Shown piece by piece: positions 56,996 through 64,000 of a stretch of DNA of 64,000 bases (its first letter is position 1; every line of letters starts with the position of its first letter). The DNA comes from Pseudomonas sp. FP2309. GTDB lineage: Bacteria; Pseudomonadota; Gammaproteobacteria; Pseudomonadales; Pseudomonadaceae. A program made the position numbers and the translations under genes. The notes below the pieces were generated by a model. That model saw only the letters and a list, made by a program, of their open reading frames with translations. It did no database searches and was not told where the DNA came from. The stretch is taken from assembly GCF_030687575.1 (NCBI RefSeq), contig NZ_CP117439.1, forward strand, positions 5,599,165-5,663,164. The letters run 5' to 3'.

Positions 56996-58887
56996 GCGCT
57001 TTGCTCCAACTGACGGCCCGCGCCGCGTTTTTTCAAATGAATCATCAACAGCGAGATGGCTGCCGGGGTCACACCAGGGATACGTGACGCCTGGCCAAGG
57101 GTTTCCGGACGAGTTATCCCCAGCTTGCTTTGAATTTCTTTCGACAGCCCGGAAATACCGGTGTAGTCGATATCCACAGGCAGCTTGGTGTCTTCACTGG
57201 CGCGCAGCCGGGCGATTTCGTCCTGCTGACGGTCAATGTAACCGGCATATTTGGTCTTGATTTCAACCTGCTCGGCGACCTGGGGATCTTCTGCGCCGCC
57301 GCCCGTCACTTCGACCAAACCTGCGTAGTCGATTTCCGGACGGGACAGCAGGTTGAGCAAGTTGTACTCGTGGGTCAGCGGCGTGCCGAATTTTTCAGCG
57401 ATTGCGTCGCCCTGTTCGGTGCCTGGACGAACCCACGTGCTTTTCAGACGCTGTTCTTCCAGCGCGATGCTCTCGCGTTTTTTGCAGAAGGCTTCCCAGC
57501 GCTCGTCGTCGACCAGACCCAGCTCGCGACCTTTTTCGGTCAAACGCAGGTCGGCATTGTCTTCACGCAGGATCAGGCGGTATTCCGCCCTCGAAGTGAA
57601 CATCCGATACGGTTCCTGGGTACCCAGGGTAATCAGGTCGTCGACCAATACCCCGATGTACGCCTCATCACGGCGCGGGCACCAGCTGTCTTTGCCCTGT
57701 GCACGCAATGCCGCGTTGGTCCCAGCCAGTAAACCTTGCGCGCCGGCCTCTTCGTAACCGGTAGTGCCGTTGATCTGGCCGGCGAAAAACAAGCCGCCGA
57801 TCACTTTGGTTTCCAGGCTGTATTTCAGGTCGCGCGGGTCGAAGTAGTCGTACTCGATGGCGTAACCAGGGCGCACGATATGCGCGTTTTCCATGCCGCG
57901 GATCGACTGCACGATCTGGATCTGCACGTCGAACGGCAGGGAAGTAGAAATCCCGTTCGGGTAAAGCTCGTGAGTAGTCAGTCCTTCGGGCTCGATAAAG
58001 ACCTGGTGACTTTCCTTGTCGGCAAAGCGGTGGATCTTGTCTTCGATCGATGGGCAATAACGCGGGCCAATGCCTTCGATCACCCCGGAATACATGGGCG
58101 AACGGTCGAGATTGGCCGCAATGATTTCGTGGGTGCGGGCATTGGTGTGCGTAATCCAGCAGCTCACCTGCTTAGGGTGTTGCTCTTTGGAGCCCATGAA
58201 CGACATGACGGGAATCGGTGTATCACCGGCCTGTTCGGTCATCACCGAGAAATCCACAGAACGTCCGTCGATACGCGGCGGGGTTCCGGTTTTCAGGCGG
58301 CCGACACGCAGCGGCAATTCACGCAGACGGTTTGCCAGGGCAATCGACGGCGGATCGCCAGCGCGGCCGCCGGAATAGTTCTGCATCCCGATGTGGATAA
58401 GTCCGCCAAGGAAGGTGCCGGTGGTCAGCACCACGGATTCTGCGAAAAAACGCAGACCCATTTTGGTGACAACACCGCGTACCTCGTCTTGCTCAACGAT
58501 CAAGTCATCCGCTGCTTGCTGAAATATCCACAGGTTCGGCTGGTTTTCCAGGGTTTCACGCACCGCCGCCTTGTACAGGATGCGGTCGGCTTGTGCCCGA
58601 GTTGCACGTACGGCCGGGCCTTTGCGGCTGTTGAGCACGCGAAATTGAATGCCACCCTTGTCAGTAGCCATGGCCATGACGCCGCCGAGGGCATCGATTT
58701 CCTTGACCAAGTGGCTTTTGCCGATCCCGCCAATAGCGGGGTTGCAACTCATGGCGCCGAGGGTTTCCACGTTGTGCGTCAGCAACAGGGTTTTTACACC
58801 CATTCGTGCTGACGCCAGTGCTGCCTCGGTACCGGCATGACCGCCGCCGATGACGATCACTTCAAAACGGGAAGGGAAATCCACCAC
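56992..58887 (-). CDS. mnmG: tRNA uridine-34 carboxymethylaminomethyl modification enzyme MnmG
   Basis: A 631-residue FAD protein (GidA) that with MnmE makes cmnm5U34 in tRNA. The FAD site is [19 protein letters not shown] at residues 12-30. The GidA signatures [19 protein letters not shown] and [17 protein letters not shown] are present. It begins with GTG (58887, or the next GTG at 58884). The first gene of the mnmG-rsmG-parA-parB run, behind the origin-like gap. Confidence 0.97.
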
Positions 58888-59437
58888 GCACCTCGTGCCT
58901 GCTTATGTAGGTAATTAGGAATTGATTGGTTGAGCTGGTTTTAGAGCTTTGGCGGCAAGTATAGGGACTTAGCCCTTCCTAAAGAACCCTTTGCACAAAA
59001 TTTAACCAGCTGTGGACGAATCACGGACAATAGAAATTAAAAAGAAAGAAATTTATAAGATCTTTGTTTTTATGTTTATTTCTACTGAGCCACGTTTCTG
59101 TGGATAGATCTCTACAGGCCTTATTTTACGGATTGTACAGAGATTCAAAAGTCTGTGGTCATGTGCCAATGAGGCCGTTGGATAAGTGCTTTAAGCCTGT
59201 GGATTAAATGACTGCTTATCCACAGGCAGGTTTTTACTCAGGTTTCGAGCCTTGTTATCAACCGAGCCTACGGGGGGTTATTCACAGGGCTTAATCCACA
59301 GAAAAGCGTCCGTAGCCGCCAAAGCCGCCCACGGAAAAGCCGTATCGATCGATGTGATTTCTCAGGTGAGGTGTTCGAATGCTCTGAAACGAACAGAACA
59401 GGCAGGCGCGAATGGCCTGCCTGGGATCAGCAAAGGG
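58888..59437. other. Origin-like region between mnmG and mnmE with DnaA boxes
   Basis: This 550-base gap has an AT-rich stretch (about 59008-59090) and a cluster of DnaA boxes. TTATCCACA at 59216-59224 is perfect; one-mismatch boxes lie at 59099 (TGTGGATAG), 59198 (TGTGGATTA), 59278 (TTATTCACA) and 59292 (TAATCCACA). A 27-base block (59116-59142) matches 63652-63678 in oriC at 23 positions. The last 120 bases are the less structured 3' flank of mnmE. It looks like a diverged copy of oriC. Confidence 0.8.
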
Positions 59438-60808
59438 CTATTTACCGATGCAAAAACTGGAGAAGATCCGTCCCAGCAGATCATCCGAGCTGAATGCACC
59501 GGTGATTTCTCCTAACAACTGCTGAGCCTGACGTAAATCTTCAGCCAGCAGCTCTCCTGCGCCTGCCAGGGTCAGTTGGGCTCTACCGTGCTCCAAGGCA
59601 GCACTTGCATGGCGCAAGGCCTCCAAGTGCCTGCGACGCGCACTGAAGCTGCTCTCCGAGGTTTGCTCGTAGCCCATGCAGGCTTTGAGATGATCGCGCA
59701 GCAGTTCCAGACCCTCTCCGGCCGATTTGGCGCTCAGGCTGATAGTCACGTGGCCATCGCCGCTGGTTTCCAAGGCGATATCGTCACCCGTCAGGTCAGC
59801 TTTATTGCGGATTAACGTGACTTTGGCCGGGTCCGGCCGTTGCTCGAGGAATTCCGGCCACAGAGCAAACGGATCCGCAGCTTCCGGCGCTGTTGCATCT
59901 ACCACCAGCAGTACTCGGTCTGCTTCGCTGATGGCCTTGAGCGCACGCTCCACGCCAATTTTTTCCACCTGGTCATCGGTGTCGCGTAGGCCCGCGGTGT
60001 CAACCACGTGCAACGGCATACCATCAATGTGGATATGTTCGCGCAGGATGTCCCGTGTGGTGCCGGCAATCTCAGTGACGATGGCCGCTTCACGCCCTGC
60101 CAGGGCATTTAGCAGGCTGGACTTACCAGCATTGGGACGCCCTGCGATGACCACTGTCATACCGTCACGCAGCAAGGCACCCTGCCCGGCCTCACGCAGC
60201 ACTGTGGATAACTCATCGCGGACTTTGTCCAACATCGCCAATACATGGCCATCGGCGAGGAAGTCGATTTCTTCCTCCGGAAAATCAATCGCCGCTTCAA
60301 CGTAGATACGCAGGCTGATCAGTTGCTCGGTCAAGTTATGCACACGCAGGGAAAAAGCACCCTGCAACGAGCGCAGTGCATTGCGCGCAGCCTGCGCAGA
60401 ACTGGCCTCGATCAAGTCGGCAATGGCCTCGGCCTGGGCCAGGTCGAGTTTGTCGTTGAGGAAGGCGCGTTCGCTGAATTCTCCTGGGCGGGCCAGACGG
60501 CAACCCAACTGCAGGCAGCGTTGCAGCAACATATCCAATACCACTGGGCCACCGTGCCCTTGCAACTCCAGCACATCCTCACCGGTGAACGAGTTTGGCC
60601 CTGGGAAGTAGATGGCCAGCCCTTCGTCCAACACGCTTTCATCCGCATCCAGAAATTGGCCGTAATGGGCGTAACGCGGCTTTAACTCACGGCCGCTGAT
60701 GGCCTTCGCCGCGTGGCCTGCGAGCGGTCCGGAAATACGCACAATACCGACCCCGCCGCGACCTTGAGCGGTTGCGACAGCGGCGATGGTTTCACGAGGA
60801 GCACTCAT
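59438..60808 (-). CDS. mnmE: tRNA modification GTPase MnmE
   Basis: A 456-residue GTPase (TrmE) and partner of MnmG. The N-terminal folate-binding domain begins [19 protein letters not shown]. The G domain has [16 protein letters not shown] (near 223), AGTTRD and NKADLTG. The C-terminus ends FCIGK, the catalytic Cys of the family. The ATG at 60808 is used; six extra codons upstream are not needed. Confidence 0.97.
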
Positions 60809-60838
60809 CAGCAGGTTCCAGGACAAAAGTGACGGAAA

Positions 60839-63252: not shown

Positions 63253-63387
63253 TCAAACTGCCAGACGCGCACGACCTTTGGCGCGACGACGCGACAGGAC
63301 AGCACGGCCGTTCTTGGTAGCCATGCGAGCACGGAAGCCGTGAGTACGGGCGCGTTTGATGGTGCTTGGTTGGAAAGTACGTTTCAT
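63253..63387 (-). CDS. rpmH: 50S ribosomal protein L34
   Basis: A 44-residue basic ribosomal protein, read directly from the sequence: it starts [19 protein letters not shown] and ends [12 protein letters not shown]. The first gene of the rpmH-rnpA-yidD-yidC run. Its promoter lies in the oriC gap. Confidence 0.97.
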
Positions 63388-63973
63388 GGCGTTGTTACCT
63401 GGTTCGTCCACAACGGGCCGGAATGGCCCCCGTTTTAAGAGACCGGCGATTCTAGAGAAAGCAAGCCTCTAGGTCAATTTCCAACCAGCTTTTCCTTCAA
63501 TTAGATCTCTACAGGTGAAAGCGACCGTTTCTATCAGCCTACCTTCCATGGGCAATGCCATAGATATAAAAATAAAGAAGGAAGTTATTTAAAGCTTTTC
63601 TGTAAAGCTTATAAAAGCTAGGCAGCCATTCCTCTGTGGATAACTGCCTTAAGGCCTTGTTTTACGTTGTGTACAGAGGATGACAACACGGGGGAGAAAC
63701 GGTGTTCTGCCTGTGCTGCGCTGTCGGATAACCTGTGTGTGGAATGACATTTTATCCACAGGCGGGTTACCCACAGACTTTCTCCCCCACTTGTGCAACG
63801 AGCTCAGGTGCGCTTATCCACAGAGCTTATGCACAGACCATTGGTCGCCTTTTTTACAGATAAGACGTTGATTTTGGCTGGCCTGTGAGCAACCTACATG
63901 TGGATAAGTGGGCTGCCGGTCGCTACAATGGCGGCTGTTTTTGCCTCACCGGCTTTCAACTTAGGGGATATCC
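63388..63973. other. oriC: Chromosomal replication origin oriC (rpmH-dnaA gap)
   Basis: Perfect DnaA boxes lie at 63635-63643 (leftward), 63752-63760, 63814-63822 (rightward) and 63899-63907 (leftward). One-mismatch boxes lie at 63767 (TTACCCACA) and 63827 (TTATGCACA). The AT-rich stretch 63559-63620 is the likely unwinding element. The gap also holds the rpmH and dnaA promoters and GGGGAT before the dnaA start. Position and content match the known Pseudomonas oriC. Confidence 0.93.
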
Positions 63974-64000
63974 GTGTCAGTGGAACTTTGGCAGCAGTGC
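63974..64000 (+). CDS. dnaA: Chromosomal replication initiator DnaA, first nine codons
   Basis: The GTG at 63974 opens MSVELWQQC, the usual N-terminus of Pseudomonas DnaA, and runs off the window. GGGGAT lies 5-9 bases upstream. DnaA binds the boxes listed in the adjacent gap. Confidence 0.95.

What the first reader, a model, noticed from the sequence alone, without database searches (positions are those of the whole stretch)
58990..59300. Second origin-like region: a collinear copy of oriC lies between mnmE and mnmG
Five landmarks in this gap recur in the rpmH-dnaA gap at exactly the same offset of 4,536 bases: the TGTGGATA box (59099 and 63635), the start of a 27-base block (59116 and 63652, 23 of 27 identical), AATGAC (59207 and 63743), the perfect TTATCCACA box (59216 and 63752), and the next box (59278 and 63814). 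The upstream AT-rich parts also resemble each other (59041 and 63574). The pattern fits an ancient duplication of the origin. Escherichia-type origins sit beside mnmG (gidA), while Pseudomonas and Bacillus-type origins sit beside dnaA, so this may be a relic or an active second element.
Basis: partly seen in the sequence, partly recalled or inferred. Interest (0 to 1): 0.8.

Follow-up and report, generated by a model that had tools for sequence, protein, structure and literature searches.

The report
Second oriC-like element in Pseudomonas chromosomes
This Pseudomonas chromosome carries, 4.5 kilobases from its replication origin, a second stretch built on the same base-for-base plan, and nearly all of its relatives keep both, which points to a standby or helper origin rather than a decayed leftover.

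Summary
The mnmE-mnmG gap (A) and the rpmH-dnaA gap (B, the usual Pseudomonas oriC) match in one register: 115 of 201 bases agree, at most 76 elsewhere in the window. DnaA boxes stand at 0, +99, +117 and +179 in 46 of 46 A gaps and 46 of 46 B gaps of Pseudomonadaceae (box +99 of B is often degenerate). Bases between boxes agree too (45% versus 25% out of register). The two least stable 60-bp stretches of the window flank the first boxes. Of 148 family genomes 141 have exactly two such cores at E 1e-8, none three. Both copies are equally conserved, so A is not decaying. Three lineages lack A; no loss of B was seen where the site could be read, and strand skew suggests B as working origin. A sits where E. 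coli and Vibrio keep oriC. In the wider order all 94 places found lie at site A or site B. Best reading: an oriC paralogue, origin-competent but accessory. Firing is not shown. Two P. aeruginosa origins, one essential, are in print.

The parts
59097..59290 (+). Copy A, oriC-like core (first to last framework DnaA box), upstream of mnmG
   Evidence: 119.2 bits with model R1 (R1 was built from A and B cores, this one included); A-only model R2 131.2 bits (likewise in the training set)
59029..59088 (.). AT-rich putative unwinding element of copy A; least stable 60 bp of the 64-kb window
   Evidence: nearest-neighbour stability scan; columns -70..-10 are 80% AT on average in 46 loci; that it unwinds is inference
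59099..59107 (-). DnaA box 0 of A (R1-like), TGTGGATAG
59134..59142 (+). Conserved non-box element TGTACAGAG (+35..+43) of A
59198..59206 (-). DnaA box +99 of A, TGTGGATTA
59216..59224 (+). DnaA box +117 of A, TTATCCACA (perfect)
59278..59286 (+). DnaA box +179 of A, TTATTCACA
59292..59300 (+). Extra DnaA-like box of A, TAATCCACA
63633..63826 (+). Copy B, oriC core between rpmH and dnaA
   Evidence: 120.9 bits with model R1 (in its training set); 81.9 bits with the A-only model R2, which had seen no B
63560..63619 (.). AT-rich putative unwinding element of B; second least stable 60 bp of the window
63635..63643 (-). DnaA box 0 of B, TGTGGATAA (perfect)
63670..63678 (+). Conserved non-box element TGTACAGAG of B
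63734..63742 (-). Degenerate box +99 of B (four mismatches)
63752..63760 (+). DnaA box +117 of B, TTATCCACA (perfect)
63767..63775 (+). DnaA box of B, TTACCCACA (no counterpart box in A)
63814..63822 (+). DnaA box +179 of B, TTATCCACA (perfect)
63827..63835 (+). DnaA box of B, TTATGCACA
63899..63907 (-). dnaA-proximal DnaA box TGTGGATAA
56992..58887 (-). mnmG (gidA), neighbour on the AT-rich side of A
   Evidence: ORF; gene name recalled from the sequence; used as tblastn query
59438..60826 (-). mnmE, neighbour on the far side of A
   Evidence: ORF; gene name recalled; relatives
59399..59423 (-). Terminator-like hairpin just after mnmE, before A
   Evidence: pattern match only
63253..63387 (-). 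rpmH, neighbour on the AT-rich side of B (coordinates read from the sequence)
   Evidence: sequence; tblastn position in relatives
63974..64000 (+). dnaA start (runs off the window, which ends with the record)

Best explanation
Copy A is a second oriC: a paralogue of the rpmH-dnaA origin, kept by selection at the place where E. coli and Vibrio have their oriC. I infer that DnaA assembles on A in the same geometry as on B (shown: box spacing, orientation, AT-rich element, shared non-box element; inferred: binding, filament, unwinding). B is the principal origin. A is accessory: a standby or conditional initiation site, or a DnaA platform that modulates B, and it can be lost. In the wider order the core is found at either of these two places or at both, so the two-copy state is the likely intermediate of origin relocation, kept in Pseudomonadaceae. 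A and B are direct repeats around rpmH, rnpA and other genes that I take to be essential (recalled), so recombination between them would be lethal, which may help keep both (inference).
For: Register identity far above chance. Box template in 46 of 46 A gaps and 46 of 46 B gaps. A model trained on A alone finds B in all 46 Pseudomonadaceae loci that have B, 38.7-90.4 bits, E 8.8e-10 to 9.2e-26. Two strong matches in the own genome, 120.9 and 119.2 bits; the next are 20 bits (same place, other strand) and 17.3. 141 of 148 family genomes with exactly two matches at E 1e-8, at two distinct places in all 141. Non-box identity 0.447 in register versus 0.250 (sd 0.026) out of register, 45 genomes; A-A 0.520 and B-B 0.511, so equal constraint. 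Both flanks of box 0 are the least stable DNA of the window. The element TGTACAGAG is kept in both copies in one clade and relaxed or altered in both in the other. All 94 core places found elsewhere in the order lie at site A or site B. For B as main origin: A is missing in three lineages, B in none where the site could be read; mnmE minus mnmG fourfold GC skew is -0.006 in Pseudomonadaceae (n=45) versus -0.153 in A-only lineages (n=23), p 1.2e-6.
Against: No DnaA-binding, replication or marker-frequency data for A were available. Natural absence of A (G032, G026 and the three g13 genomes) shows that it is dispensable. PMC4403523 (passages) reports that of two P. aeruginosa origins only one is essential in the laboratory. 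With boxes masked, this genome alone gives only marginal significance. The E. coli oriC region itself is not found by the A-only model at E 1, and the three Vibrionaceae loci only weakly (21.1, 17.7 and 15.0 bits). The skew test counts related species, and a first version with gene means by group was inconclusive.
Confidence: 0.7

Rival explanations
1. A does not start replication. It is a DnaA-binding control site (titration, reactivation, or the far half of a bipartite origin) that acts on B.
For: Same boxes and register, 4.5 kb from B. In E. coli rnhA mutants an initiation zone next to dnaA depends on DnaA and, for full UV induction, on oriC about 75 kb away, so two DnaA clusters may cooperate (PMC12000880, passages).
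Against: Titration alone should need neither a conserved AT-rich element nor fixed spacing (inference). The A-B distance is not fixed: in Pseudomonadaceae from 4.3 kb (G093) over 8.5 and 10.2 kb (G080, G030) to 24 kb (G050), and 6.8 to 28 kb in families f7 and f33 (coordinates).
Confidence: 0.3
2. A is a decaying relic of a former origin.
For: Position equals the E. coli and Vibrio oriC. A is missing in three lineages.
Against: Equal conservation of A and B (0.520 and 0.511 at non-box columns). Among 14 close relatives the AT-rich element of A is 94% identical, while identity 230-290 bp from box 0 is 0.37 in the same ungapped comparison. Two cores in 141 of 148 genomes.
Confidence: 0.1
3. A is a DnaA-controlled promoter region of mnmG.
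For: A stays with mnmG (box 0 at 179-242 bp from its start, once 377) while the mnmE-mnmG gap grows up to 6.3 kb by inserts on the other side.
Against: No sigma-70-like promoter found in 58850-59500. It explains neither a 190-bp register shared with the origin nor genomes that keep mnmG without A. In E. coli the gidA promoter is said to have no DnaA boxes and was not affected when DnaA accumulated (PMC5835720, passage).
Confidence: 0.1
4. A and B are not duplicates. Two independent box clusters were shaped to one spacing by the DnaA filament.
For: E. coli and Vibrionaceae keep nearly the same first-to-last distance (179-180) with another inner spacing. The boxes carry much of the score.
Against: Non-box columns agree only in register, including a shared element that is not a box.
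Confidence: 0.12

Closest known systems
The two putative chromosomal origins of Pseudomonas aeruginosa (Yee and Smith 1990; Smith et al. 1991; Jiang et al. 2006, as cited in PMC4403523)
   Same: Two autonomously replicating elements in one Pseudomonas chromosome; only one essential (passages).
   Different: The primary papers are not held (Smith 1991 not tried), so I could not check that the second element is the mnmG-side site. Family-wide register, equal constraint and natural losses were not in the passages seen.
E. coli / Vibrio oriC beside mnmG (gidA)
   Same: Same neighbour, same orientation, first-to-last DnaA box distance 179-180.
   Different: Recalled as the single oriC there; inner box at +106 instead of +117; no +99/+117 pair. 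The A-only model scores Vibrio weakly and E. coli not at all.
rpmH-dnaA oriC of Pseudomonas (copy B; stated for P. putida strains in PMC3056050 and for strain UW4 in PMC3596284, passages)
   Same: Same core; own-genome scores 120.9 and 119.2 bits.
   Different: B has more perfect boxes; A has a more AT-rich flank on average.
Bipartite origins of Bacillus subtilis and Helicobacter pylori (PMC4285127, passages)
   Same: Two DnaA-box clusters near dnaA.
   Different: There only one subregion has an unwinding element and usually dnaA is the spacer; here both have AT-rich elements and the A-B distance varies.
Dormant origins of haloarchaea (PMC4595724, abstract)
   Same: An extra origin, silent normally, that can take over.
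   Different: Archaeal origins with other initiators (recalled); analogy only.
E. coli oriK-3850 next to dnaA (PMC12000880, passages)
   Same: The mirror case: DnaA-dependent initiation beside dnaA in a species whose oriC is at mnmG.
   Different: A broad zone in rnhA mutants, not an oriC copy.

Membership tests
Bacterial oriC (DnaA-dependent origin) | Cluster of DnaA boxes | tested here: met
   Five boxes with at most one mismatch in A; template in 46 of 46 A gaps
Bacterial oriC (DnaA-dependent origin) | AT-rich unwinding element beside the first box | tested here: met
   Least stable 60 bp of the window, 59029; unwinding itself not tested
Bacterial oriC (DnaA-dependent origin) | Conserved neighbourhood (mnmG or dnaA) | tested here: met
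   mnmG start 211 bp from box 0
Bacterial oriC (DnaA-dependent origin) | DnaA binding and open complex | not testable with these tools
   needs footprinting or ChIP-seq
Bacterial oriC (DnaA-dependent origin) | Initiates replication in the chromosome | tested here: inconclusive
   Skew of mnmE favours initiation at B; occasional firing of A not excluded
Paralogue of the rpmH-dnaA origin | Sequence similarity beyond the boxes, in register | tested here: met
   0.447 versus 0.250
Paralogue of the rpmH-dnaA origin | Common stem of A and B after separation from other families | tested here: inconclusive
   Neither A+B of the family as one clade (p 0.83) nor all A as one clade (p 0.20) is rejected; the quick tree search was itself not optimal
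P. aeruginosa second origin (oriC2) | Same chromosomal place | not tested
   two primary papers not held; no record titled P. aeruginosa among the 80 loci
Bipartite origin | Short spacer (dnaA as a rule) and a single unwinding element | tested here: not met
   Two AT-rich elements; distance 4.3 to 28 kb

The most novel reading that the evidence does not exclude
Pseudomonadaceae carry two origin-competent sites on one chromosome, kept in base-exact register by selection. A fires or takes over under some condition. The same two sites have exchanged the role of sole origin repeatedly in the order, through two-origin intermediates such as families f1 and f7.
Probability: 0.35. Interest if true: 0.85.

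Novelty: new variant of a known kind. Interest (0 to 1): 0.62.

Why it matters
Bacterial chromosomes are taught as single-origin, and how the origin came to lie beside dnaA in some bacteria and beside mnmG in others is an old question. A whole family that keeps both sites in one register, next to families with only one or the other, gives living intermediates and makes origin relocation testable. It also bears on origin finders: DoriC met two candidate origins in some gammaproteobacteria and kept the gidA one (PMC6323995, passage).

Tried and rejected
Fourfold GC skew as gene means by group was inconclusive because genes differ in base line; the paired mnmE minus mnmG test replaced it.

Recent gene conversion: A/B agreement is higher within a genome than between genomes (0.447 versus 0.423; 0 of 10,000 permutations), but cross-genome pairs of close relatives agree as well (0.469-0.473), so there is no sign of recent conversion. 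Agreement falls with species distance (to 0.402) while slid controls do not; read as shared constraint or slow homogenisation.

Tree of 95 cores: A and B of the family fall mostly apart, but no scenario tested is rejected, and some constrained trees were better than the free quick tree. Promoter scan of gap A: none found. A resemblance of GATCTTTGTTTTT (59059) to the recalled E. coli 13-mer was not pursued; GATCT is not conserved in relatives. Nine literature searches listed no paper whose title or abstract start tells of a conserved mnmG-side origin copy in Pseudomonas; I opened passages of 14 papers and the outline of one, and the library lacks most subscription papers. Ogasawara and Yoshikawa 1992 is recalled as treating the gidA and dnaA sides together; it was not read.

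Rows dropped: L040 (no mnmG on the contig) and L034 (no dnaA or rpmH on it) from pair tests; L030 from the A part of the training alignments (kept in the template test); L046 left out of the two-clade test, whose split I chose myself. 'A-only' and 'B-only' in the order mean no second match at E 1e-4 with strict filters, so weak second copies may be missed (G236 has a weak A, 15.7 bits). 102 of the 195 order genomes had no match at all.

Full report
WHERE. The window is the last 64 kb of a 5.66-Mb single-contig chromosome that opens at dnaA. Its best named mnmE relatives are Pseudomonas sp. KBW05, sp. MIACH and P. fildesensis (96-97% identity). Order: mnmG(-) | gap A | mnmE(-) yidC yidD rnpA rpmH(-) | gap B | dnaA(+) (gene names recalled). 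Gap B is the usual Pseudomonas oriC (PMC3056050 and PMC3596284, passages).

OBSERVATION. At offset 4,536, 115 of 201 bases agree; the best of all other placements in the window is 76. Local alignment score is 46 against at most 33 in 1,000 shuffles; with boxes masked, 34 against at most 33.

ANATOMY. Counting from the first box, boxes stand at 0 and +99 (reverse) and +117 and +179 (forward). I tested this fixed template without gaps in 47 Pseudomonadaceae loci, the window included. Gap A was available in 46 and fits in 46 (2 to 9 mismatches of 36; 20 shuffles each gave 14 or more). Gap B was available in 46 and fits in 46 (1 to 11 mismatches; shuffles 13 or more; box +99 often degenerate, and in a few loci one box is a base off). 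Distances from box 0 to the next gene vary; the core hardly does. On the outer side of box 0 both gaps have AT-rich DNA (80% and 73% AT on average), and these hold the first and second least stable 60-bp stretches of the 64 kb (59029 and 63560). A non-box element, TGTACAGAG at +35, is in both.

HOMOLOGY BEYOND BOXES. At 103 columns outside boxes, A and B of the same genome agree at 0.447, against 0.250 (sd 0.026, maximum 0.295) when slid by 1-20 bases; 45 genomes. A profile built only from A cores finds B in all 46 Pseudomonadaceae loci that have B, 38.7-90.4 bits.

SPREAD IN THE FAMILY. With a profile from both copies the own genome has two strong matches and nothing near. Of 148 family genomes, 141 have exactly two matches at E 1e-8, six have one, one has none, none has three. 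Gene neighbours were read in the named loci and in fetched stretches, not in all 141. Of the seven exceptions, G002 and G036 have the missing site at a contig end. In G032 and G026 the mnmE-mnmG gap is short and empty of the core while B remains (strong in G032, weak in G026). G012, G028 and G038 (one genus) have only B. So A is missing in three lineages; I saw no loss of B where the site could be read.

CONSTRAINT. A and B are equally conserved between species (0.520 and 0.511 at non-box columns). Among 14 close relatives the AT-rich element of A is 94% identical and the core 78-84%; ungapped identity falls to 0.60 at +192..+230 and 0.37 beyond +230. In one clade (29 genomes) the four columns of TGTACAGAG that one search lists (35, 36, 38, 42) keep one base in 24-29 genomes in A and 23-28 in B; in the other clade (15 genomes) both copies are relaxed or altered. 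Over all non-box columns the within-clade excess of A/B agreement is 0.031 (45 columns above +0.02, 24 below -0.02), Wilcoxon p 0.0015, with slid controls from -0.016 to 0.008. The simplest reading is one trans-acting factor seen by both copies; shared ancestry with relaxation in one clade is not excluded. This argues against a relic.

WHICH ONE WORKS. The segment between A and B is copied leftward if B is the origin and rightward if A is. The fourfold-site GC skew of mnmE minus that of mnmG is -0.006 in Pseudomonadaceae (n=45) and -0.153 in 23 loci that I assigned to A-only lineages, three Vibrionaceae included (two of the 23 are slightly positive; p 1.2e-6). Species are not independent, so this is supportive only. 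Together with the loss pattern it makes B the principal origin.

WIDER ORDER. Of 195 genomes drawn from the order, 93 have a core at E 1e-4; nine of these are Pseudomonadaceae. The other 84 genomes hold 94 places. I fetched all 94 (21, 60). All lie upstream of mnmG or between rpmH and dnaA. L135 is 1.6 kb from mnmG; in L106, L107, L131 and L145 only rpmH, and in L263 only the end of mnmE, is on the contig; in family f38 the core lies between rpmH and mnmG and is counted as A. By my tally 39 genomes have A only, 35 B only and 10 both (seven of family f7, G209 and G317 of f33, G171 of f25). Families f25, f33 and f34 mix states. Over 281 genomes of the class, 47 have a match at E 1e-3; of the 13 with two, two are Pseudomonadaceae, nine show the two strands of one place, and G507 and G527 have separate places (neighbours not checked). 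E. coli has boxes at 0, +106, +180 beside mnmG, the three Vibrionaceae loci at 0, +106, +179 or +180; the A-only model scores the latter weakly (15.0-21.1 bits) and E. coli not at all. Site A is thus the seat of the Escherichia-type origin and site B that of the Pseudomonas type, and this order holds living two-site states. Whether the two copies arose once or repeatedly is not resolved.

LITERATURE. P. aeruginosa has two autonomously replicating elements, of which only one is essential; that the other was once functional is raised there (PMC4403523, passages). Primary papers tried are not held. P. [quoted passage not shown] In E. coli rnhA mutants a DnaA-dependent zone beside dnaA needs oriC for full UV induction (PMC12000880, passages). 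DoriC saw two candidate origins in some gammaproteobacteria (PMC6323995, passage). The idea of a second Pseudomonas origin is thus not new. In the listings and passages I saw, I found no account of its family-wide register, equal constraint, losses, or site switching in the order.

MECHANISM AND LIMITS. Shown: spacing, orientation, AT-rich flanks, shared element, constraint, distribution. Inferred: DnaA binding in the same geometry, opening, and a standby or modulating role. Not shown: any firing of A. I put about 0.7 on an origin-competent, selected oriC paralogue with B as main origin, and about 0.35 on the bolder reading in which A fires in the chromosome under some condition.

Noticed in passing
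L002:11409-15376 and L017:11438-15443: An insert between mnmE and copy A encodes what look like a TonB-dependent receptor, a FecR-like and a FecI-like protein (names from reading the sequences; no family search). Five loci have mnmE-mnmG gaps of 4.5-4.6 kb; only these two were read. The core stays whole beside mnmG in them.
   Followed up: partly
L104, L115, L147, L267: Family f38: the core lies between rpmH and mnmG, as if the rpmH side of B were fused to the mnmG side of A.
   Followed up: partly
L208 (G155:C4:121410-123275): mnmG of G155 reads through one in-frame TGA: error, broken gene or recoding.
   Followed up: no
L086 (G000:C1:5582486-5582578): A weak third core-like match (17.3 bits) in the own genome, outside the window, to model positions 121-193 only.
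   Followed up: no
L025: Record titled Paucimonas (MAG) carries typical Pseudomonas A and B cores; the label looks doubtful.
   Followed up: no
L126 (G242), L132 (G281), L144 (G209) and L150 (G280): In some genomes outside the family the core at mnmG is recognised only from about model position 47-65 on, so the first box may be replaced or shifted there.
   Followed up: no
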